Source: a virus. Taken from it: a DNA stretch of 55,237 bases. Of this stretch, positions 1-55,237 are shown one piece after another. Below the pieces are notes generated by a model, which was not told the DNA's origin, ran no database searches, and saw nothing but the letters and a program-made list of their open reading frames with translations. The translations under genes were made by a program, and so were the position numbers. Each line of letters starts with the position of its first letter. Positions within the stretch are counted from its first letter, which is position 1. Location: positions 1 through 55,237 of IMG/VR virus record IMGVR_UViG_3300020201_000024, one strand, 5' to 3'.

Positions 1-191
1 GCAAGGCCCACGTGTCCGACAACGCCCAAGTGTCATCCACCGCCCGTGTGTACGGCAACGCCCGCGTGTACGGCATCGCCCAAGTGTCCGGCGACGCCAT
101 TGTGTCCGGCTACGCCCGTGTGTACGGCGACGCCGAAGTGTCCGGCTACGCCTGCGTGTACGGCGATATCTCAGGCAAGGAGCAGGAGTGA
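1..191 (+). CDS. Hexapeptide-repeat (left-handed beta-helix) protein, C-terminal part
   Basis: No start codon is present in the window. The open frame (first full codon at base 3) encodes about ten hexapeptides of the V-[YS]-G-[ND]-A-X type and ends in GDISGKEQE. Such repeats form a left-handed beta-helix in known proteins. Bases 20-145 are identical to 55112-55237, so this is most likely the end of the gene that begins at 54624; joining the two gives an uninterrupted frame of about 219 residues. The last codons contain AAGGAGCAGGAG, which also serves as ribosome-binding site for the next gene at 195. Function unknown. Confidence 0.85.
   Translation, partial: KAHVSDNAQVSSTARVYGNARVYGIAQVSGDAIVSGYARVYGDAEVSGYACVYGDISGKEQE
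20..145 (+). repeat. Direct terminal repeat, left copy (pairs with 55112-55237)
   Basis: These 126 bases are identical to the last 126 bases of the window. The first 19 bases differ from the corresponding bases upstream of the other copy at several positions. Most likely this is the closure overlap of a circular or terminally redundant genome that was broken inside a repetitive gene. A true 126-bp duplication between two paralogous genes is the alternative. Confidence 0.75.
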
Positions 192-194
192 AAT

Positions 195-671
195 ATGAAA
201 TTCAAATTTACAGACGAGACTAGGATTACCCCCTCCGGGGAAACTATTTACCGCATTGAAGCTATTGAGGATATCCCTAGCCGAGGGGTTAAAGTTGGAG
301 ACAAAGGGGGATTTGTTGGTAAATCTGCTCAGGTAACTGGTGATGCATGGGTGTATGACAACGCCCGTGTGACCGACAACACCCAAGTGTACGGCAACGC
401 CCAAGTGTACGGCAACGCATGGGTGTCCGGCAACGCCCGAGTGTACGGCAAGGCCCACGTGTCCGACAACGCCCAAGTGTACGGCGACGCACACGTGTCC
501 GGCAAAGCCAAAGTGTACGGCTACGCCCTTGTGTACGGCTACGCCCGTGTGTACGGCAACGCCCAAGTGTACGGCTACGCATGGGTGTCCAGCAAAGCCC
601 GTGTGTACGGCAACGCCCAAGTGTCCGACAACGCCCAAGTGTCCGGCGATATCTCAGGCGCGGCACCATGA
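195..671 (+). CDS. Hexapeptide-repeat (left-handed beta-helix) protein
   Basis: 158 aa. Residues 1-47 form the constant N-terminal domain of this family (starts MKFKFTDET, contains VKVGDKGGFVGKSAQVTGD). Then come about 17 hexapeptides such as VYGNAQ and VSDNAQ, and a short tail GDISGAAP that replaces the usual GDISGKEQE. The ATG follows AAGGAGCAGGAG encoded by the end of the preceding copy, so the genes are coupled. Proteins with this N-domain plus hexapeptides (YdcK-like, often labelled polymer-forming or acetyltransferase-like) occur in phages and bacteria without a settled role. I see no catalytic histidine insertion loop, so an acetyltransferase activity is not supported. Confidence 0.9.
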   Translation: MKFKFTDETRITPSGETIYRIEAIEDIPSRGVKVGDKGGFVGKSAQVTGDAWVYDNARVTDNTQVYGNAQVYGNAWVSGNARVYGKAHVSDNAQVYGDAHVSGKAKVYGYALVYGYARVYGNAQVYGYAWVSSKARVYGNAQVSDNAQVSGDISGAAP

Positions 672-10451: not shown

Positions 10452-13400
10452 ATGAAGGTAACTAAGAAAAAGTTCGCAGATGGAGGCGCTACGTATGGAG
10501 CTAAGCCTACTACGATTGAAGAAAGCTCTGTGGATGGAGCTAAGCATATTACGATTAAAGGGGGCCCTACGTATGAAGCTAAGCCTACTACGATTGAAGG
10601 GGGCTCTGTGTATGGAGCTAAGCCTATTACGATTGAAGAGGCCCTTCTCTCTATGCAAAAGCGAGATATTGCCAATACGATAGGCCACCAAGTCTATCCC
10701 GCCCCTAACCCCGCTTACTTTGAACCTAAATATGGAGCTAAGCCTATTACGATTGAAGAGGCCCTTCTCTCTATGCAAAAGCGAAATATGGCCAATACGA
10801 TAGGCCAAGCCTATCCCGCCCGTAACCCCGCTTACTTTGACCCTAAAGATGAGGCGTTAGAGAATCCTCTGTTTAGCCCAGAGGACTTGGTAGCACTGCC
10901 TGCGGACCTCGCGGCTAAGGGTGTTATGCGTGTTGGAGAAGCTGCGGCGCCCTATGTGAAGGCCGGGGCTAAGGCTATAGGTAGAGGCGCTGCGGCGCTT
11001 ATGGAAGACGAGTCAGGTAACCTAGGCCGTAAAGGTGTTCAAGCCCTTATGCCAGAGCTTCCCCCTGAAGTCCCTATGTACTCTAAACTGGAGGAAACGG
11101 TTAATTCTAAAATCCGTCAATCCATGCCCAGTGAGTATGTTAAAGCTACCCTCAAAAATGCAGGCGTCACTGCGGACGAGCTAGAAGTTTATGGGGTGGA
11201 CGGATTTTTAAAAGGTAAAAAAACCGTAACCCCCGAAGAACTAAAAGAGTTTGTTAAAAATAATCGCCCCAATATTGAAAAACACTCTTATGGCGATAAA
11301 ATTGAGAAGTTTGACGATGCAGGCATTCCGGAGGATTTTGAAATATCCGACAGGGACATAGCTAGATCGTGGGATAACTTAGAAGATAAAGATGACTTTG
11401 ATGAGGCGTGGATGGAGTACCGAGACACCCTCAGGTCCGAACACTCCGACAATCCGATAAACAGGTTTAAAGTTGAGCCCGTAGAAACGCGCGGAGGCTC
11501 TACTAAATACGTTTTAGATTTAGGGGATGAAGAGTTTACTACGGGGTACGGGCAACGCCGTAAATCACACACCGGCAGCTTAGAGTTTGGTACTGAAGAC
11601 GAAGCGCAAAGCGTTTTAAATGATATTATAGATAACTGGGAAGAGGGCTTTGAGCTTTCTGATCAAGACACCGCCAACGTAGCGGCGCCCTTTATTGAAG
11701 CTCACGGCGTGCAAGTGCGCCGGGAGGCTTGGGAACGGGCTTTAGAGGAAAACCCCGACTTAGCCCCTCCCGCCAAAAGTCTCCCCGATGGGGCGCTCAA
11801 AAGGGCAGAGGCGCCCCTTAGCGGGAAAACTAAATATAAAAATTACACGTTAGAGGGGGGAGAAAATTACCGTGAGGACCTCTTTACCGGCCCAAGCAAG
11901 ACTTCATTTACGGCGGAGCGAGCAGAGAAGGACTTCCGCAGCGTAGTAGCTAAGACTGAAGACTCTCTTACCCTAAAAGGGGTCGATACGCACAGTCCGG
12001 AAATGGCAGAGTACGTCGATACCTTACGCGACTCCGCAAAAGTAGAGGATAAAGAGGTTGTAAAAGCCTATGATGCGGTTGTCCCCCCTTGGAAGCGCAC
12101 TGCTAAGTTAACTATTTCTCAAAAAGAAGCCCAACTTGAGGAACTTGAGGGCGAACTCGACGGTATAAACAGCGGGTATGAGGCAAAAAAAGATGAAATC
12201 CTACGCGACGCGGTTGAGGCGTCGCAGGAGTCGTCGGTTGCTCAATTAGAAACACTTGATGCTCAAAGAGATCTTGCGGCGGAGCTTAATCGGGACAAAC
12301 GCGTCAAATTACGCAAGGATACTGCAGATTTAAGACTATCTCTTGAAAACACTTCGGGTGAATACAAGGGTTCCCATTTTGGCGACCGCCAGCCCAATAT
12401 CTTTGTGCACGCACGCACTACCGAGCGCGACCTTCCGGGCGTTGGTAAATCTTTGCACGTAGAAGAGATCCAGTCAGACGGGCATCAAGAGGCGCGGAAG
12501 GTCGGCTATGTGGGTGAAGCCGCCAAGCCTTACACAGGTATTGTATTTGGGCAGGAAGTACAAGATGCGCACTTAGCTAAGATGCAAGGTCAACTTGACG
12601 AATACATGCGTAAGCACAACCTCACAGACCGCACTTCGGCCTTGTCGCAAGCGGAGCAAGCGGGAGTATTTAACCCCCAGGACATGCAAAAGCTGGCAGA
12701 TATCCAATCCTATAAACTTCACCAAGAAAACCCTTCCGGTATTCCTGAAATGATTATGGCTAAAGGTTGGGAAGACCATGGCTTTAAGCGGTCTTTGCAG
12801 AAAGCTGTTGATCAAGACAAGGATTACCTGACCTGGAATACGGGCGAAATTTCCGCCAGGATTAACAGTACTCCCAAAGAAGGACATGAGGGGCAAAAAT
12901 TTGCGTATGATAAAAAATACCCTGGAATTATTAAACGGTTAATTAATCAATTTGACTCTAGCATTACAGTAGAGAAGGTACGAGTAGGAACTGGAGAAGG
13001 CAAGACGGCGGAAGTTTGGGGCATCAAGCTCACCCCTAAGCTTAAAAATGCTCTACGCAAAAAAGGATTTGCTAACTTTGCATCAGGCGGTATGGTTGGC
13101 TACGCGAATGGCGGCGGGGTTGTAGGCAGTCAACCAGGAGACAATGGAACCTTAATTCCTTATGATGCCGCTCCTACCGATGCTGCTCCTACCGATGTTA
13201 TTGACCCCTATACTCCCGATCCAATTGATCAACAATCTTCAGATGTTAACGTAATTACCCCCGAAGGAGACCTCGTCTCTATCCCCCAGGAGAGTCTGGC
13301 GCAAGCGTTACAGCTTGGATACTCTCACGCGCCACAGCAACAGGTTGAAAATCACTTTCAACAGAAGAAATATGGCGCTGCGGGGCAGCAAGCTATTGCC

Positions 13401-15956
13401 GGACTTGAGGGCGTCGCTTCGGGCGTTGTGGGCAGCACTTTGGCTACCGCCGCTGAGCGGGGCTTTGGGGTTAACCCTGCCGATATCCGCGCGCGAGAAG
13501 CTGCTAACCCCGGCACCCACTTAGCCGGTGAGGTTGTAGGCTTTGCTGGTAGCGCATTAGCGGGCACAGGCGAAGCTGCTTTACTAGGTAAGGCAGGGGA
13601 AGCTGCCGCCAGTGCTGTAAAGCTTACTGGGGGCTGGCAGAAGCAGGTAGCGCAGGATGTGGTAAGGGCGGCCTTTGAGGGTGTCCTTTACCAGGCTGAT
13701 CAGGAGCTTGGGCGAGTAGTTAAACAAGACCCAGAAGTGGGCGCAGGGTACGCGATTGTCAATATTGGCTTAGCGGGCGTCATGGGCGGTGTATTTGGAG
13801 GAGCAACGGGCGCAGCTTTGAGGAAACTCGGAGTGCACCCCGAATTACCTTCTGCTCAAGTTGACGAAGGCCCCTTTGTGTCCGGCATGGACATGGCGGC
13901 CTATGAAGCGGGCGACCTTAAGACCCACGTAGCCGTTAGCACCGATATTGCCCCCGCTAAAAAGGAAGGGCTGCTCTCTGCATTTAAGCTTAACAAACAA
14001 AAACATAACGCCAAAGAGATTAAAGAAGCAGCTAAGACCATAGGAGCGCCTGAAACTCCTGGCATGACTCTTGAATCTCCTTTGATTCAAATGCAGCTTG
14101 ACTCCCTTGCTCATAGCCCATACACCTACTCGGGTAACAAGATTAGGGGTCAACTCGACGCTGCCTATAGCACCGCTGAGGGGGCTTTGGAGGGGGCTAC
14201 TAAATCCGCTAGTGGTTTGTCTAAGGAAGAGTTAGGGCTTTCTGTTCAAAAATCTCTTACTGACCAGATCAAGACTGCCTACGCTCCCGTCAAAACCGCT
14301 TTTGAGGAAGTGTCCGCGTTGCATCCTAACGTACCTGTTGAGTTGAAGTCTATTGGAGCGTTTAAAGAGGGGCTTAAGGACATCAAAGAGATCGCTTTGG
14401 GACCTAGTACCGACGAGGGCAAGCTTGCCCGTCAAGTTATTAGCGCACTTCAAAACGCTAAGACTGCGGAAGACATTGGAATTGTTCGCAATATGGCGGC
14501 TTTGAAGAAGTCGGGCCTTGGCGCAGACCCTATGGGACGCATTAAAGGCGTCTTGCGCGACCGCTTAGCTGAGATGCAAGACGACGCCGTAGCACGGTAC
14601 GCTAAAAGTTTTCCTCGTAACGACGAAGCGGGCGCTTTGATGGGCAGCTTGATTGACCAAAACGCCGCCGCTAAGGAGGCGTATAAGCCTTATATCCGCA
14701 AGGTAGGCGAATTGAGCGAATGGCTAGGTAAGGGTAAAATCCACGGTACCGCAGACGCTTTGAATTTTATGAACGAGCGGCTAACGGCTACCGACATCTC
14801 TAAGCGTATGTTTAGCGCCGCTAAAGACCCTGCGTTTATTAAGTTCTTCTCTAAGGAGTTTCCTGAACAGTTTCAGTTAGTTAGAGACCATCAACGTATG
14901 GCTTTGCGGGACGCTGCAACTACCGGCGAGTCGTTCAGCCCTAAAGTATTCTTTAACAAATACAATAAGTTAGAGCCTGAGATTCAGCGGGCGCTGTATA
15001 CTGTGGAAGAAATGAGAAAAATTGCCGCTTCGGAAACCTATATCCGCGACGCCTTTCCTAAGAATTTCAACCCGTCCGGCACCGCGCATGCCCTTGCCCT
15101 AAAATCCGCATATGGTAGCCCCAAAGGTCTCCTTTTGGCTAACGCCAGAGATTACGCCATGGAGAAGGTCATTAACGCTTCCAGCAACATAAAAACGCAG
15201 CAAGCGCAAGCTTTGGCAGAGGCTACTATTAAAGGAGACCGCCTCTCTACGAAAGCAGTAAAAGCTATTTTCAACCCTATGAAAGATGCCATGCCCTCAG
15301 CCGTGTACCCCCTTGCAGCGCATAGGGACAAGCTAGAGCGCATTGTAGCCGGGTACCAGGCGGACCCATCTAAAATGTTTGGGCAAAACGATAGCAACCC
15401 TGTACCGGCCTATGCTCAGGCTTTTTCTGGGACTACTGCGCGGGCGATGAGTCTATTAGTGGCGGCTAAGCCCGGTATGGTACCTCGTAACCCCCTGGAT
15501 ACCATCATCCCCGCTTCTAAGCCTCAGCAAGCTCAGTACACGCGTACCCTGGACATTGCCCAACAGCCTCTAAGCGTACTAGCTAGAATTAAAAACAACA
15601 CGTTGGTTAGCGCGGACGTAGTGCTGCTTAAGACTTTGTATCCCACTATCTATAACGGGTTATCTCAGAAATTAATGAACACTATCATTGAGATGAAGGG
15701 TAAAGGTAAGGTCATCCCTTACAATACCCGCATTCAGCTTAGCGTATTCCTTGGGCAGCCTCTGGATAGCACTATGACTCAGCCCTCTATTGCCGCCGCA
15801 CAAGCTAAACCTTTGGCGCAACAACAGCCGCAAGAGTCTGCTCAAACTCCCAAAACTGGGGTTAGAAGAAATACAGGGGCTTTGGAGAAGCTTGGAACCT
15901 CTTATCAGACAACTTCGCAGGGGCGTGTCAGAGATCGATCAGACGGTAAACTTTAA
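10452..15956 (+). CDS. Giant polyvalent ejection protein
   Basis: 1834 aa. Order: KKFADGG motif (residues 5-11); tandem repeats of YGAKPTTIEE type (residues 15-132); an acidic/helical region; a large polyvalent protein-type domain around residues 640-860, marked by HVEEIQSDGHQEARKVGY and WNTGEISARIN; GG motifs (FASGGMVGYANGGGVVG) near 875; a Gly/Ala-rich membrane-active stretch around 980-1130 (VASGVVGSTLATAAERGFGV); then a long helical region to the end. In known phages, multi-domain proteins of this size are packaged and injected to act on the cell envelope or in the new host. No complete catalytic signature is visible. It follows the previous gene by ten bases. Confidence 0.75.
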   Translation: MKVTKKKFADGGATYGAKPTTIEESSVDGAKHITIKGGPTYEAKPTTIEGGSVYGAKPITIEEALLSMQKRDIANTIGHQVYPAPNPAYFEPKYGAKPITIEEALLSMQKRNMANTIGQAYPARNPAYFDPKDEALENPLFSPEDLVALPADLAAKGVMRVGEAAAPYVKAGAKAIGRGAAALMEDESGNLGRKGVQALMPELPPEVPMYSKLEETVNSKIRQSMPSEYVKATLKNAGVTADELEVYGVDGFLKGKKTVTPEELKEFVKNNRPNIEKHSYGDKIEKFDDAGIPEDFEISDRDIARSWDNLEDKDDFDEAWMEYRDTLRSEHSDNPINRFKVEPVETRGGSTKYVLDLGDEEFTTGYGQRRKSHTGSLEFGTEDEAQSVLNDIIDNWEEGFELSDQDTANVAAPFIEAHGVQVRREAWERALEENPDLAPPAKSLPDGALKRAEAPLSGKTKYKNYTLEGGENYREDLFTGPSKTSFTAERAEKDFRSVVAKTEDSLTLKGVDTHSPEMAEYVDTLRDSAKVEDKEVVKAYDAVVPPWKRTAKLTISQKEAQLEELEGELDGINSGYEAKKDEILRDAVEASQESSVAQLETLDAQRDLAAELNRDKRVKLRKDTADLRLSLENTSGEYKGSHFGDRQPNIFVHARTTERDLPGVGKSLHVEEIQSDGHQEARKVGYVGEAAKPYTGIVFGQEVQDAHLAKMQGQLDEYMRKHNLTDRTSALSQAEQAGVFNPQDMQKLADIQSYKLHQENPSGIPEMIMAKGWEDHGFKRSLQKAVDQDKDYLTWNTGEISARINSTPKEGHEGQKFAYDKKYPGIIKRLINQFDSSITVEKVRVGTGEGKTAEVWGIKLTPKLKNALRKKGFANFASGGMVGYANGGGVVGSQPGDNGTLIPYDAAPTDAAPTDVIDPYTPDPIDQQSSDVNVITPEGDLVSIPQESLAQALQLGYSHAPQQQVENHFQQKKYGAAGQQAIAGLEGVASGVVGSTLATAAERGFGVNPADIRAREAANPGTHLAGEVVGFAGSALAGTGEAALLGKAGEAAASAVKLTGGWQKQVAQDVVRAAFEGVLYQADQELGRVVKQDPEVGAGYAIVNIGLAGVMGGVFGGATGAALRKLGVHPELPSAQVDEGPFVSGMDMAAYEAGDLKTHVAVSTDIAPAKKEGLLSAFKLNKQKHNAKEIKEAAKTIGAPETPGMTLESPLIQMQLDSLAHSPYTYSGNKIRGQLDAAYSTAEGALEGATKSASGLSKEELGLSVQKSLTDQIKTAYAPVKTAFEEVSALHPNVPVELKSIGAFKEGLKDIKEIALGPSTDEGKLARQVISALQNAKTAEDIGIVRNMAALKKSGLGADPMGRIKGVLRDRLAEMQDDAVARYAKSFPRNDEAGALMGSLIDQNAAAKEAYKPYIRKVGELSEWLGKGKIHGTADALNFMNERLTATDISKRMFSAAKDPAFIKFFSKEFPEQFQLVRDHQRMALRDAATTGESFSPKVFFNKYNKLEPEIQRALYTVEEMRKIAASETYIRDAFPKNFNPSGTAHALALKSAYGSPKGLLLANARDYAMEKVINASSNIKTQQAQALAEATIKGDRLSTKAVKAIFNPMKDAMPSAVYPLAAHRDKLERIVAGYQADPSKMFGQNDSNPVPAYAQAFSGTTARAMSLLVAAKPGMVPRNPLDTIIPASKPQQAQYTRTLDIAQQPLSVLARIKNNTLVSADVVLLKTLYPTIYNGLSQKLMNTIIEMKGKGKVIPYNTRIQLSVFLGQPLDSTMTQPSIAAAQAKPLAQQQPQESAQTPKTGVRRNTGALEKLGTSYQTTSQGRVRDRSDGKL
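10494..10847 (+). repeat. Tandem repeats inside the giant ejection gene (39 bp and 120 bp periods)
   Basis: Three 39-bp units begin at 10494, 10533 and 10572 with TATGGAGCTAAGCCTA-like starts. They are followed by two longer units at 10611 and 10731 that share about 54 nearly identical bases and a period of 120. All are in frame, encoding YGAKPITIEE-type repeats. This suggests recent slippage or recombination and possible length variation between isolates. Confidence 0.85.
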
Positions 15957-25180: not shown

Positions 25181-25660
25181 TCACTCCTGCTCTTTGCCTG
25201 AGATATCGCCGGACACGCGGGCGTGGCCGGACACTTCGGCGATGCCGAACACGCAGGCGTTGTCGGACACGTGGGCGTTGCCGTACACCCATGCGTAGCC
25301 GTACACACGGGCGTTGCCGTACACGCAGGCGTAGCCGTACACTTGGGCGTTGTCGGACACTTGGGCGTCGCCGCACACCCATGCGTTGTCGTACACTTCG
25401 GCGTTGCCGGACACGCAGGCGTTGCCATACACTTGGGTGTTGTCGGTCACACGGGCGTTGCCGAACACGTTGGCGTTGCCGAACACGCAGGCGTTGTCGG
25501 ACACCCATGCCTCACCCGTTACCTGGGCAGATTTACCAACAAATCCACCTTTGTCTCCAACTTTAACCCCATGGATAAAGATATCCTCAATAGCTTCAAT
25601 GCGGTAAATAGTTTCTTCGTAGGGGGTAATCCTAGTCTCGTCTGTAAATTTAAATTTCAC
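25181..25660 (-). CDS. Hexapeptide-repeat (left-handed beta-helix) protein, third of tandem trio
   Basis: 159 aa from GTG in a GTGA overlap with the preceding copy. The N-domain is diverged (TPYEETIYRIEAIEDIFIHG) but keeps VKVGDKGGFVGKSAQVTG. About 17 hexapeptides follow (VSDNAC, VFGNAN, VYGNAR) and the end is GDISGKEQE. The frame opens much further upstream through the neighbouring repeats, which is a shadow; the GTG after CAAGGAGCAGGA is the supported start. Function unknown. Confidence 0.85.
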   Translation of the reverse strand: MKFKFTDETRITPYEETIYRIEAIEDIFIHGVKVGDKGGFVGKSAQVTGEAWVSDNACVFGNANVFGNARVTDNTQVYGNACVSGNAEVYDNAWVCGDAQVSDNAQVYGYACVYGNARVYGYAWVYGNAHVSDNACVFGIAEVSGHARVSGDISGKEQE

Positions 25661-26520
25661 TCCTGCTCCTTGCCTGAGATATCGCCGTACACCCGTGCGT
25701 AGCCGTACACTTGGGCTTTGCCGGTCACTTGGGCGTAGACGGACACTTCGGCGTCGCCGTACACGTGGGCGTTGTCGGTTATGAGGGCGTTGCCGAACAC
25801 ACGGGCTTTGCCGTACACTTGGGCTTTGCCGGTCACTTGGGCGTAGACGGACACTTCGGCGATGCCGTACACTCGGGCGTTGCCGCGCACTTGGGCGTCG
25901 CCGAACACTCGGGCGTTGCTGCGCACTTGGGCGTTGCCGTACACGTGGGCGTTGCCGTACACTCGGGCGTCGCCGTACACGCGGGCGTTGCCGTACACTC
26001 GGGCGTCGACGAGCACTTGGGCGTTGCCGCCCACACGTGCGTTGCCGTACACCCGTGCGTTGCCGTACACTAGGGCTTTGCCGTCCACGTGGGCGTTGCC
26101 GTACACTCGGGCGTAGTCGAGCACTCGGGCTTCGCCGTACACCCGTGCGTTGTCGGACACGATGGCGTGGCCGGACACTCGGGCGTCGCCGGACACGTGG
26201 GCGTCGCCGTGCATCCACACGTTGTCGGACACGCAGGCGTTGCCATACACTTGGGTGTTGTCGGTCACACGGGCGTAGCCAAACACAAGGGCTTCGCCGT
26301 ACACCCACACGTTGTCGGACAAGTAGGCGTTGCCGTACACCCGTGCGTTGCCGGACACCCATGCATCACCCGTTACCTGCGCAGATTTACCAACAAACCC
26401 CCCTTTGTCTCCAACTCTAACTCTAACTCCCCGGCTAAAAATATCCTCAATAGCCTCAATACGGTAAATAGTTTCACCGGAGGGGGTAATCCTAGTCTCG
26501 TCTGTAAATTTAAATTTCAT
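25657..26520 (-). CDS. Hexapeptide-repeat (left-handed beta-helix) protein, second of tandem trio
   Basis: 287 aa, the longest intact member. The N-domain has a short insertion (SRGVRVRVGDKGG); about 38 hexapeptides follow, ending GDISGKEQE. A block with AEVSVYAQVTGKAQVYGKAR is repeated nearly exactly at about 25720-25760 and 25800-25860, evidence of internal duplication. Start ATG follows AAGGAGCAGGAG from the copy before. A left-handed helix this long would be a fibre of roughly a dozen turns. Cellular or virion location is not indicated: there is no signal peptide. Confidence 0.88.
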   Translation of the reverse strand: MKFKFTDETRITPSGETIYRIEAIEDIFSRGVRVRVGDKGGFVGKSAQVTGDAWVSGNARVYGNAYLSDNVWVYGEALVFGYARVTDNTQVYGNACVSDNVWMHGDAHVSGDARVSGHAIVSDNARVYGEARVLDYARVYGNAHVDGKALVYGNARVYGNARVGGNAQVLVDARVYGNARVYGDARVYGNAHVYGNAQVRSNARVFGDAQVRGNARVYGIAEVSVYAQVTGKAQVYGKARVFGNALITDNAHVYGDAEVSVYAQVTGKAQVYGYARVYGDISGKEQE

Positions 26521-26523
26521 ATA

Positions 26524-27057
26524 TTACTCCTGCTCCTTGCCTGAGATATCGCCGTACACGTGGGCGTCGCCGGACACGCAGGCGTTGCCGTACACTCGGG
26601 CGACGCCGTACACTTGGGATTTGCCGGACACACGGGCGGTGCCGGACACTTGGGCGTTGCCGTACACTTGGGCGTTGTCGTACACGGGGGCGTTGTCGGT
26701 CACACGGGCGTTGCCGGACACCCACGCGTCGCCAAACACCCACGCGTCGCCGGACACAATGGCGTTGCCAAACACACGGGCGCTGCCGAACACACGGGCG
26801 TTGCCGGACACACGGGCGTTGCCAAACACACGGGCGCTGCCGGACACCCACGCGTCGCCGTACACTTGGGCGTTGTCGGACACTTGGGCGTCGCCGTACA
26901 CCCATGCATCACCAGTTACCTGAGCAGATTTACCAACAAATCCCCCTTTGTCTCCAACTTTAACCCCTTGGCTAGGGATATCTTCAATAGCTTCAATACG
27001 GTAAATAGTTTCACCGGAGGGGGTAATCCTAGTCTCGTCTGTAAATTTAAATTTCAT
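26524..27057 (-). CDS. Hexapeptide-repeat (left-handed beta-helix) protein, first of tandem trio
   Basis: 177 aa. The first 160 bases are almost identical to those of the gene at 195 on the other strand, then the repeats diverge (about 20 hexapeptides such as VFGNAR and VSGSAR). Ends GDISGKEQE. Its ATG overlaps the stop of the helicase gene (ATGA), so it is translated as part of the helicase operon. Function unknown. Confidence 0.88.
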   Translation of the reverse strand: MKFKFTDETRITPSGETIYRIEAIEDIPSQGVKVGDKGGFVGKSAQVTGDAWVYGDAQVSDNAQVYGDAWVSGSARVFGNARVSGNARVFGSARVFGNAIVSGDAWVFGDAWVSGNARVTDNAPVYDNAQVYGNAQVSGTARVSGKSQVYGVARVYGNACVSGDAHVYGDISGKEQE

Positions 27058-52768: not shown

Positions 52769-54070
52769 ATGGGCGCAGTTTATGCAAATAGTTCCAATCA
52801 GATCGCGAGTTTGAAAGAACTCTATAAAGATGACTCCGATTACATGAAGGATATGGTTTATAAAGAAAACCCCTTCCTTGCCCTCGTCCCTAAGAACGAG
52901 TCTCCAGACGGGTTTGCCGGTAAGTACATCCCGGTCCCCCTCGAATACGGCACTCCTCAAGGTCGCGCGCACACTTTCGCTAATGCCCAGAATCAACAGA
53001 CGGCAACGTCTCTGGCTAGCTTCTTTGTGTATGTGATTCAGGATTATCAACTCGTTACGATTACCAATCTCTTGATGGAACAGACCAAATCCGACGCAGG
53101 CGCGTTTGTGGATGCGGCTAAGCTCCAGATGGACGGCGGTTTCCGCAACATCACTAACAACATCGCTTTCGAAATCTTCGGCAGCGGTACCGCCACGCGC
53201 GGCATCTCTGCCATTACCTCCAGCCAGGTCGGCGGTGTTGCTCCTAGCGGCGTGACCCTTCCTTTGACCAACTCGAATTCGGTTGTTGCGTTTGAAATTG
53301 GCATGTTGCTCGTGGCTTCGGCTACGGACGGCGGCGCCCCTTCGTCGGATACCGTGTTGATTACGGAAGTGAACCGCGCCAGCGGTGTGATTAAAGGTAC
53401 GGCTTCGGCGGCGGTTCTTTCCGCTAACTGGGCAATCGGTACCGCAATTGCGTATCTCTCCATCTCGGGAGATATCCCCCTCTCTGGCGCAGTGAACACC
53501 GGCAGCTTCCTGGCCCTTTCCGGCCTTGCTGCTTGGATTCCTGTAACCTCTCCTGCTCCTACTGACAACTTCTGGGGTGTTAACCGCAGCGCCGACCCGA
53601 CCCGCCTTGCCGGTCTTCGGTTCGATGCTCGCGCTTACACCATTGAAGAAGGCATGACCAACGCGCTTGCTTTCAGCAATCGTGAAGGCGCTAAGCCTGA
53701 CCTGTGCATCATGGACTTCGCGTCCTATGCCGCACTCGTTAACGCTTTGGGTGCTAAGGTTCAGTACGTTCAAGTTAACCATGACGAAGTTGAAGTAGCT
53801 TTTGAAGGTATCACCTTCCAGAGCGCCTATGGCCGCGTCACGGTGCTCGCGGATCGTAGCTGCCCTCCCCAGACTGCATACCTCCTCACTATGTCGACTT
53901 GGAAGCTCCGCTCGCTCGGTAAAGTCCCCCACATCCTCACTTACGGAATGGAAGGGCTTGAAGGCCTCCGCGTCGGCAATGCGGATGCTCTGGAAATCCG
54001 CATCGGCTACTACGGGAATTTGATTTGCTCAGCACCCGGCTTTAACTGCGTGGTCCAGCTTAGCAACTAA
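52769..54070 (+). CDS. Major capsid protein (HK97 fold)
   Basis: 433 aa, starting MGAVYANSSNQIASLKELYK. The N-terminal arm region holds KDDSDYMKDMVYKENPFLAL and VPKNESPDGFAGKYIPVPLE, and the rest has long alternating strands (RVTVLADRSCPPQTAYLLTM, LRVGNADALEIRIGYYGNLI), typical of podovirus HK97-fold capsid proteins. Codon choice is more uniform than in neighbours, consistent with high expression. Flanked by the scaffold gene and a strong terminator. Confidence 0.92.
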   Translation: MGAVYANSSNQIASLKELYKDDSDYMKDMVYKENPFLALVPKNESPDGFAGKYIPVPLEYGTPQGRAHTFANAQNQQTATSLASFFVYVIQDYQLVTITNLLMEQTKSDAGAFVDAAKLQMDGGFRNITNNIAFEIFGSGTATRGISAITSSQVGGVAPSGVTLPLTNSNSVVAFEIGMLLVASATDGGAPSSDTVLITEVNRASGVIKGTASAAVLSANWAIGTAIAYLSISGDIPLSGAVNTGSFLALSGLAAWIPVTSPAPTDNFWGVNRSADPTRLAGLRFDARAYTIEEGMTNALAFSNREGAKPDLCIMDFASYAALVNALGAKVQYVQVNHDEVEVAFEGITFQSAYGRVTVLADRSCPPQTAYLLTMSTWKLRSLGKVPHILTYGMEGLEGLRVGNADALEIRIGYYGNLICSAPGFNCVVQLSN

Positions 54071-54623: not shown

Positions 54624-55237
54624 ATGAAATTTAAATTTACAGACGAGACCAAGACTAGCCTCACCGGTGAAACTATTTACCGCATTGAAGCTATTGAGGA
54701 TATCCCTAGCCAAAGGGTTAAAGTTGGAGACAAAGGGGGATTTGTTGGTAAATCTGCTCAGGTAACGGGTGATGCATGGGTGTCCGGCAACGCCCGAGTG
54801 TACGGCAACGCCCACGTGTCCGGCAACGCCGAAGTGTCCGGCGACGCCCACGTGTACGGCGACGCCCACGTGTACGGCAACGCCCACGTGTCCGGCTACG
54901 CCTTTGTGTCCGGCAACGCCCAAGTGTCATCCACCGCCCAAGTGTCCGGCGACTCCCTTGTGTCCGGCAACGCCCAAGTGTACGGCAACGCCCTTGTGTG
55001 CGGCGACGCATGGGTGTCCGGCAACGCCTGCGTGTCCGGCGACGCCCACGTGTACGGCGACGCCCACGTGTACGGCAACGCCCGCGTGTACGGCGACGCA
55101 TGGGTGTCCGGCAACGCCCAAGTGTCATCCACCGCCCGTGTGTACGGCAACGCCCGCGTGTACGGCATCGCCCAAGTGTCCGGCGACGCCATTGTGTCCG
55201 GCTACGCCCGTGTGTACGGCGACGCCGAAGTGTCCGG
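54624..55237 (+). CDS. Hexapeptide-repeat (left-handed beta-helix) protein, cut by the window end
   Basis: 204 residues are visible. The N-domain reads MKFKFTDETKTSLTGETIYR then VKVGDKGGFVGKSAQVTGD. About 26 hexapeptides follow (VSGNAR, VYGNAH, VSSTAQ). The last 126 bases equal bases 20-145, so the protein should continue into the fragment at 1-191 and end GDISGKEQE, with about 219 residues in total. The ribosome-binding site is the AAGG of GATCAAGGTTAAT. Fourth start of this family in the window and fifth locus if the ends are not joined. Confidence 0.88.
   Translation, partial: MKFKFTDETKTSLTGETIYRIEAIEDIPSQRVKVGDKGGFVGKSAQVTGDAWVSGNARVYGNAHVSGNAEVSGDAHVYGDAHVYGNAHVSGYAFVSGNAQVSSTAQVSGDSLVSGNAQVYGNALVCGDAWVSGNACVSGDAHVYGDAHVYGNARVYGDAWVSGNAQVSSTARVYGNARVYGIAQVSGDAIVSGYARVYGDAEVS
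55112..55237 (+). repeat. Direct terminal repeat, right copy (pairs with 20-145)
   Basis: Identical over 126 bases to the left copy. Overlaying the copies gives a circle of 55092 bases. Confidence 0.75.

What the first reader, a model, noticed from the sequence alone, without database searches (positions are those of the whole stretch)
25181..27057. Family of hexapeptide-repeat proteins with a constant frame and one hypervariable position per coil step
Seen: at least five loci (54624-end plus 1-191, 195, 26524, 25657, 25181) share a nearly identical first 160 bases and a common end encoding GDISGKEQE, but the middle is a different string of 18-base units in each. Within a unit most positions have two or three states (Tyr/Ser, Gly/Asp, Asn/Asp/Tyr). 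The residue before each Val is wide open: Gln, Arg, His, Lys, Glu, Trp, Leu, Ile, Cys and Phe all occur. Known: such hexapeptides form a left-handed beta-helix where Val and Ala point inside. Inferred: the open position is on the surface, so the family presents different ladders of side chains on one scaffold, a possible diversity system for binding host, phage or immune-system targets.
Basis: partly seen in the sequence, partly recalled or inferred. Interest (0 to 1): 0.75.

Follow-up and report, generated by a model that had tools for sequence, protein, structure and literature searches.

The report
Phage solenoid proteins with shuffled surfaces
Many phages, this one included, carry genes for a rod-shaped repeat protein in which natural selection has kept the framework letter-perfect while mixing the outward-facing side chains like a synthetic binding library, which suggests a so far undescribed family of naturally diversified binding proteins.

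Summary
The window (a complete or near-complete IMG/VR phage contig) carries five paralogous genes of 18-base units, with a constant N-terminal cap and a shared tail. They belong to the known YdcK beta-solenoid repeat family (Pfam PF18836), whose function is unknown.

The title is too narrow. Each unit varies at three residues, which come down to four nucleotides: X before Val (Trp/Arg/Gln, also Glu/Lys), Tyr/Ser after Val, and Asn/Asp.

In 179 arrays of at least 10 units, from phages and bacterial genomes, these four nucleotides are near maximally diverse within an array. Fourfold synonymous sites are almost invariant within an array but differ between phages (Fst 0.86-0.92, against 0.18-0.26 at the variable sites; 150 loci). 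Neutral drift cannot give this. Simulations reproduce it with selection for unlike units plus sub-unit gene conversion; strong targeted hypermutation also could.

Cultured S. thermophilus phages differ 12-65 times more inside the array than beside it, in tracts copied from elsewhere in the same array. Near-identical relatives of the window keep unit number and order and differ by conversion-like patches.

Best reading: an accessory phage scaffold with selected, recombination-shuffled surfaces, probably a binder of variable host or rival proteins. The target is unknown.

The parts
54624..55237 (+). A0: array gene, 5' part (cap + about 27 hexapeptide units); continues at 146-191 across the contig ends
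   Evidence: Translation across the junction is one open frame ending GDISGKEQE; relative L096 matches the joined sequence without any difference
146..191 (+). A0: array gene, 3' end with the GDISGKEQE tail
1..26 (+). Chimeric assembly end inside repeat (not part of the real sequence)
   Evidence: L011/L096 reads different units here; the first 20 bases recur in A195 at 448
177..188 (+). AAGGAGCAGGAG inside the tail codons: Shine-Dalgarno of the next array gene (start at 195)
   Evidence: sequence
195..671 (+). A195: array gene, 158 aa, 18 units counted from FVGKSA; tail GDISGAAP
   Evidence: PF18836 E=8e-20
26524..27057 (-). A26524: array gene, 177 aa, 21 units; ATG overlaps the helicase stop
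   Evidence: PF18836 E=6e-26, phrog_5070 E=5e-58
25657..26520 (-). A25657: array gene, 287 aa, 39 units
   Evidence: PF18836 E=1e-31
25181..25660 (-). A25181: array gene, GTG start, 18 units
   Evidence: PF18836 E=1e-16; start codon
26527..26538 (-). AAGGAGCAGGAG in the tail of A26524: Shine-Dalgarno of A25657
25660..25671 (-). AAGGAGCAGGAG in the tail of A25657: Shine-Dalgarno of A25181
27054..28361 (-). Helicase, upstream in the same operon as the three minus-strand arrays (context)
   Evidence: phrog_16 DNA helicase E=3e-51
52769..54070 (+). Major head protein, upstream of A0 (context)
   Evidence: phrog_9953 E=3e-12; only 2 of 80 relatives carry an array within 3.5 kb of it

Best explanation
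The five genes encode accessory phage proteins of the YdcK beta-solenoid family: a constant N-terminal cap followed by a left-handed-type solenoid of A-X-V-(Y/S)-G-(N/D) units. Shown: within an array the DNA of all units is almost identical except at four nucleotides, which set X, Y/S and N/D; the non-varying codons drift between phages, but the same small residue palettes return in each. Inferred: selection at the protein level keeps the surface residues unlike each other (diversifying selection), while short-tract gene conversion within and between arrays erases all other variation and moves patches of surface from unit to unit. Inferred, not shown: the palette (Trp, Arg, Tyr plus Ser, Asn, Asp, Gln) is that of protein-binding surfaces, so the solenoid is most likely a binding scaffold, expressed by the phage in the cell, whose several paralogous copies bind different or fast-changing host, defence or rival-phage proteins. 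The shared tail GKEQE is explained separately: its codons carry the ribosome-binding site of the next gene in the tandem.
For: Within-array nucleotide diversity: X codon 1 and 2, Y/S codon 2 and N/D codon 1 about 0.45-0.51; the other 14 sites median 0 or close to it; fourfold sites mean 0.11, median of each site 0; X above fourfold in 97 of 99 arrays, p about 1e-17. Replicated in 80 arrays from 76 GTDB genome loci, three of them complete chromosomes: fourfold 0.073, X 0.44, Y/S 0.45, N/D 0.42, p about 1e-12. Fst over 150 loci: Val third 0.92, Gly third 0.87, Ala third 0.86, N/D third 0.94 against 0.26, 0.19, 0.23 and 0.18 at the four variable sites. The same degenerate unit YRG GTx TMy GGx RAy GCx recurs with phage-specific fixed codons. 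X composition R .33, W .28, Q .20 in loci of GC 28-71%. Cultured S. thermophilus phages: 10-14 differences in 312 array bases against 1-4 in 1489 neighbouring bases, p 1e-5 to 1e-9; changed tracts of 45 and 39 nt have exact donors elsewhere in the array, and a 44-nt tract in the window's relative has its donor in paralogue A0. In simulations only heterogeneity selection with sub-unit conversion, or 200-fold hypermutable sites, gives diverse variable sites together with zero synonymous diversity.
Against: No target, partner or expression data. No constant neighbour gene. No one-coil periodicity of exposed residues, as an oriented binding face might show. The window's own arrays are noisier than the family average. 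Donor matches are only moderately improbable by chance (0.002-0.13). Changes restricted to variable sites in close pairs are what conversion alone would give, so those pairs show turnover, not selection. Structure models of the solenoid are weak, so exposure is inferred from the family fold.
Confidence: 0.55

Rival explanations
1. Heterogeneity for folding or solubility: neighbouring units must differ so that a long, internally identical solenoid folds in register and does not aggregate. Diversity within one protein is selected, but no variable partner is bound.
For: Selection for unlike units alone reproduces the pattern in simulation; order of states shows no structure beyond weak memory; unit order is conserved in close relatives.
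Against: Core Val/Ala, which set the register, do not vary at all; 28% exposed Trp is costly for solubility; does not explain several paralogues per phage (window 5, L039 6).
Confidence: 0.2
2. Site-directed hypermutation: a mutator acts on four nucleotides of each unit, with little selection.
For: A 200-fold higher rate at these sites gives the observed diversity in simulation.
Against: Spectra differ by site (A/C at Y/S, A/G at N/D, T/C and A/G at X), so no single chemistry fits; X codon palettes of 47 of 175 arrays are not linked by single steps through codons present (e.g. GAG/CGG/TGG in L013), and residues in a unit are linked; changes in close pairs come in tracts; no reverse transcriptase in the window.
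Confidence: 0.08
3. Neutral tandem repeat: exposed positions are simply free to drift, starting from mutable CGN arginine codons.
For: In the window 94 of 114 X residues are Arg or one transition from it (R, Q, W, H, C).
Against: Trp stays near 28% in phages of GC 28-71% and with AGG-based palettes; fourfold sites, which should drift at least as fast, are invariant; neutral simulations homogenise variable sites too.
Confidence: 0.04
4. Hexapeptide acyltransferase or bactofilin-like polymer, as many records name it.
For: Weak cross-matches to LpxA/LpxD/GlmU models and bactofilin above cut-off in one of the four window proteins scanned.
Against: All acyltransferase models far below cut-off, Hexapep PF00132 below cut-off; no conserved His or active-site loop in units that carry any of 13 residues at X.
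Confidence: 0.08

Closest known systems
YdcK beta-solenoid family (Pfam PF18836; PDB 2F9C/2PIG; NCBIfam NF040481)
   Same: Same repeat (PF18836 above cut-off) and same N-terminal region plus solenoid (profile match 14-182 to 2F9C, E=3e-29)
   Different: Far below the NF040481 equivalog cut-off (82.7 vs 350); E. coli/Salmonella YdcK units are degenerate and single-copy as I know them (knowledge, not tested); the phage arrays are near-perfect DNA repeats with three variable residues
PHROG families phrog_5070 and phrog_7964 (phage proteins of unknown function)
   Same: Full-length matches, E down to 1e-85
   Different: No function or diversification pattern is attached to these families
Diversity-generating retroelements (Mtd of Bordetella phage)
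   Same: Phage protein scaffold with a limited set of varied, tyrosine-rich surface positions (Mtd: PMC3567102)
   Different: No reverse transcriptase; variation not adenine-templated; spread over repeat units and moved by conversion
TAL effector repeats, lamprey VLRs
   Same: Works like: near-identical repeats with few variable residues that make the binding surface (knowledge)
   Different: Different fold and no homology; no target shown here
Minimalist Tyr/Ser synthetic antibody libraries
   Same: Tyr/Ser binary position encoded by TMC/TMT; discussed as 'binary code' in PMC3567102
   Different: Man-made; here natural and combined with W/R/Q and N/D positions

Membership tests
PF18836 B_solenoid_ydck | Score above Pfam gathering cut-off (30 bits) | tested here: met
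   88.5, 106.5, 59.6 and 69.4 bits
YdcK equivalog NF040481 | Score above NCBIfam cut-off (350 bits) | tested here: not met
   82.7 and 80.5 bits
Bactofilin PF04519 | Score above 27.9 bits | tested here: inconclusive
   44.8 bits for A25657 but 25.6, 20.3 and 26.8 for the others: cross-match of repeats
Hexapeptide acyltransferases (PF00132, LpxA, LpxD, GlmU) | Model cut-offs and conserved catalytic His | tested here: not met
   all below cut-off; no conserved residue at exposed positions
Left-handed beta-helix fold | Structure with Val/Ala inside and X, Y/S outside | tested here: inconclusive
   Homology to YdcK 2F9C; AF2 gives 4-residue strands A-X-V-Y every 6 residues but low confidence or no known-fold match in the solenoid
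Diversity-generating retroelement | Reverse transcriptase and template repeat | tested here: not met
   no RVT_1 match in the window; template repeat not searched separately
Anti-phage defence proteins (PADLOC) | Model match | tested here: not met
   no match for array proteins
Binding repertoire (analogy to TALE/VLR) | Ligand bound through the variable residues | not testable with these tools
   needs pull-down or structure of a complex

The most novel reading that the evidence does not exclude
Phages maintain a natural combinatorial binding repertoire on a beta-solenoid scaffold: a four-nucleotide alphabet per 18-base unit (W/R/Q/E/K x Y/S x N/D), refreshed by sub-unit gene conversion under diversifying selection, without any reverse transcriptase, and used against variable host or competitor proteins.
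Probability: 0.4. Interest if true: 0.92.

Novelty: new variant of a known kind. Interest (0 to 1): 0.8.

Why it matters
The protein family is known by fold only and is annotated as 'hypothetical', 'transferase' or 'cytoskeletal'. The contrast found here (Fst about 0.9 at synonymous sites against 0.2 at three residues, in 150 phage and bacterial loci) is one of the cleanest signatures of protein-level diversification one can see in sequence alone. It says these proteins are selected to have unlike surfaces. If they are binders, phages hold a naturally evolved repeat-protein library spanning many bacterial phyla, useful for finding new host or defence targets and as a scaffold for designed binders. 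It also warns that short-read assemblies, and CRISPR finders, misread these loci.

Tried and rejected
Neutral decay of CGN arginine codons at X: attractive in the window alone, rejected by Trp frequency across GC contents and by invariant fourfold sites. One-coil (3-unit) periodicity of exposed residues: none in the window or in 109 arrays. DGR: no RVT_1. Whole-unit conversion with selection: simulation keeps synonymous diversity too, so rejected. Constant neighbour gene: none in 59 flanking proteins. Search for close relatives by helicase: none; polymerase gave two fragments without arrays; MCP gave 80 more distant relatives, 2 with an array near it. E. coli genomes: no DNA match. Structure search: no reliable match. 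Literature (7 searches): I saw no paper on function or diversification of phage YdcK-like solenoids; only open-access text was searched. Vibrio phage pairs 1.034.O/X and 1.139.A/B (identical over the ~3.1 kb of flank compared, different arrays) were not used as proof because the arrays include frameshifts typical of short-read misassembly.

Full report
WHAT IS THERE. The window is a 55,237-base IMG/VR virus record with a tailed-phage gene set: terminase, portal, major head protein, polymerase, UvsX-like recombinase, helicase, endolysin. Its two ends meet inside a repeat array: the last 100 bases recur at 46-145, and a 99.4%-identical relative (L011/L096) reads straight through the junction and shows that the first ~26 bases of the window are a chimeric repeat end. 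Five array genes are present: A0 (54624-end plus 146-191), A195 (195-671), and, downstream of the helicase on the minus strand, A26524, A25657 and A25181 (the last with a GTG start at 25660). The first 150 bases are 85-97% identical between them.

WHAT IT IS. Pfam PF18836 (YdcK beta-solenoid repeat) is matched well above its cut-off by all four window proteins scanned (A0, which spans the contig ends, was not scanned); phrog_5070 and phrog_7964, both of unknown function, match over the full length; a 39-protein profile finds only YdcK 2F9C/2PIG among solved structures (E=3e-29, including part of the cap). AlphaFold2 with the alignment gives a confident N-terminal cap (pLDDT 92-95) and four-residue strands A-X-V-Y every six residues, at low confidence; without alignment the solenoid is confident (about 90) but resembles no known fold. 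I therefore take the fold from homology, and exposure of X and Y/S as inference from the established left-handed beta-helix pattern. The genes are accessory: 61 of 50,697 phage records match, 2 of 80 relatives of the window's head protein carry an array near it, and most of 176 S. thermophilus phage records that share Sfi19 flanks lack it. They occur in Proteobacteria, Firmicutes, Bacteroidetes, Actinobacteria, CPR and archaeal bins.

THE MAIN RESULT. In 114 variable units of the window, X has 13 residues (2.89 bits), but the Tyr/Ser and Asn/Asp positions are also open (2.1 and 2.2 bits). Across 79 loci (phage, plus one plasmid) of GC 28-71%, X is Arg 33%, Trp 28%, Gln 20%, Glu 6%, Lys 5%; the next outward position is Tyr 52% or Ser 32%; the corner is Asp 47% or Asn 44%; Val 98% and Ala 97% do not vary. 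At the DNA level only four of 18 nucleotides vary: within-array diversity is about 0.45-0.51 at X1, X2, Y/S2 and N/D1, and the median is zero or near zero at the other 14, including the fourfold third positions of Val, Gly and Ala (99 arrays). I found this by exploration and then repeated it on an independent set, 80 arrays from 76 GTDB genome loci: fourfold mean 0.073 and exactly zero in 43 of 80, against 0.44, 0.45 and 0.42. The fixed codons differ from phage to phage (GTC/GGC/GCG, GTT/GGT/GCT, GTG/GGC/GCT and so on) while the same degenerate unit YRG GTx TMy GGx RAy GCx returns. Expressed as Fst over 150 loci: 0.86-0.94 at third positions, 0.18-0.26 at the four variable sites. The window's own arrays show the same contrast with more noise (X 0.39-0.67 per site, Val third 0.11-0.22, Gly third 0.07-0.17, Ala third 0.28-0.47).

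WHAT CAN PRODUCE THIS. A neutral exposed site cannot: third positions would vary at least as much. Simulations of a 22-unit array show that neutral conversion homogenises everything, and that selection for unlike units with whole-unit conversion keeps third positions diverse too. Selection with sub-unit conversion tracts gives 0.51 and 0.00, as observed; a 200-fold hypermutable set of sites with no selection gives similar values. Against hypermutation: each site has its own base pair (A/C, A/G, T/C), in 47 of 175 arrays the common X codons are not joined by single steps through any codon present, and residues within a unit are linked more than by chance; all this fits shuffling of a founder palette. 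Direct evidence of conversion: cultured S. thermophilus phages Sfi19, SFi18 and CHPC919 have equal array lengths; 10-14 of 312 array bases differ against 1-4 of 1489 beside it; SFi18 differs by a 45-nt tract with nine changes, one synonymous, that is an exact copy of another place in the Sfi19 array, and CHPC919 by a 39-nt tract with a donor; chance of such a match is 0.002-0.03 and 0.02-0.13 depending on the null. In the window's relatives, unit number and order are identical; A195 of L096 carries a 44-nt tract found in paralogue A0, A25181 of L095 and L180 carries a clustered patch of changes without a donor in hand. Elsewhere (L039, L064, L084, L087) a cluster of up to six tandem array genes shows a 7-unit deletion and mosaic replacement of one array between phages about 98% identical; these rest on metagenome assemblies. 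Note that conversion between units that differ only at variable sites will show changes only there; the close pairs prove turnover, and the case for selection rests on the Fst contrast.

FUNCTION. The palette is telling: by established knowledge Trp, Arg and Tyr are the residues most enriched at the energetic centre of protein interfaces, and Tyr/Ser alternation encoded by TMC/TMT is the 'binary code' of minimalist synthetic antibody libraries (discussed in PMC3567102; the codon detail is from my own knowledge). A protein selected to carry such residues in unlike combinations, in several copies per phage, in early or accessory positions (in Sfi19 a few genes after the anti-CRISPR AcrIIA6 and just before Gam- and Sak4-like recombination genes) is most simply a binding scaffold against changeable proteins. 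This step is inference. The absence of any 3-unit periodicity means there is no specialised face, and the lack of a constant neighbour gives no hint of the target. The main rival is that unlike neighbours are needed for folding or solubility.

CAVEATS. Loci share ancestry, so p-values overstate independence; the per-array contrast is nevertheless nearly universal. The simulations are illustrative: few replicates and one set of rates. Many arrays come from short-read assemblies; three loci in complete chromosomes (L192, L203, L210) and the cultured phages show the same pattern, with some third-position noise. The literature search covered open-access text only.

Noticed in passing
L005-L009 (Vibrio phages MG592418, MG592419, MG592511, MG592510, MG592579): The public records annotate stretches of the array as CRISPR spacers on the opposite strand of the coding gene; these are false CRISPR calls caused by the repeats.
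   Followed up: partly
L005 vs L006 and L007 vs L008: Sister isolates of one Vibrio phage are identical over the ~3.1 kb of flank compared but differ in array length, content and even frame; either real instability or short-read misassembly.
   Followed up: partly
window 177-188, 26527-26538, 25660-25671: The conserved protein tail GKEQE doubles as the ribosome-binding site of the next gene in the tandem, making each gene a self-contained cassette.
   Followed up: yes
window 1-26 and 55237: Contig ends lie inside an array; the first ~26 bases are chimeric, and the genome is probably circularly permuted or terminally redundant.
   Followed up: yes
L184 (Streptococcus salivarius plasmid pIKMIN-B502, 52326-57256): A run of six CDS, of which at least five carry YdcK-type arrays, on one plasmid; a possible phage-plasmid.
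   Followed up: no
L013-L083, C-terminal parts: Two recurrent C-terminal cap domains (one with IGC..H...W, one with VTRGCFSGT..EF) have no Pfam match in the seven proteins scanned and are combined with the same solenoid.
   Followed up: partly
L182 2083-2472 (Sfi19 orf129): An annotated gene lies out of frame inside the array gene; it is probably open only because the 18-base repeat has no stop in that frame.
   Followed up: no
window 10452-15956: An 1834-aa open frame with no PHROG match, as well as several other large unassigned virion-region genes.
   Followed up: no
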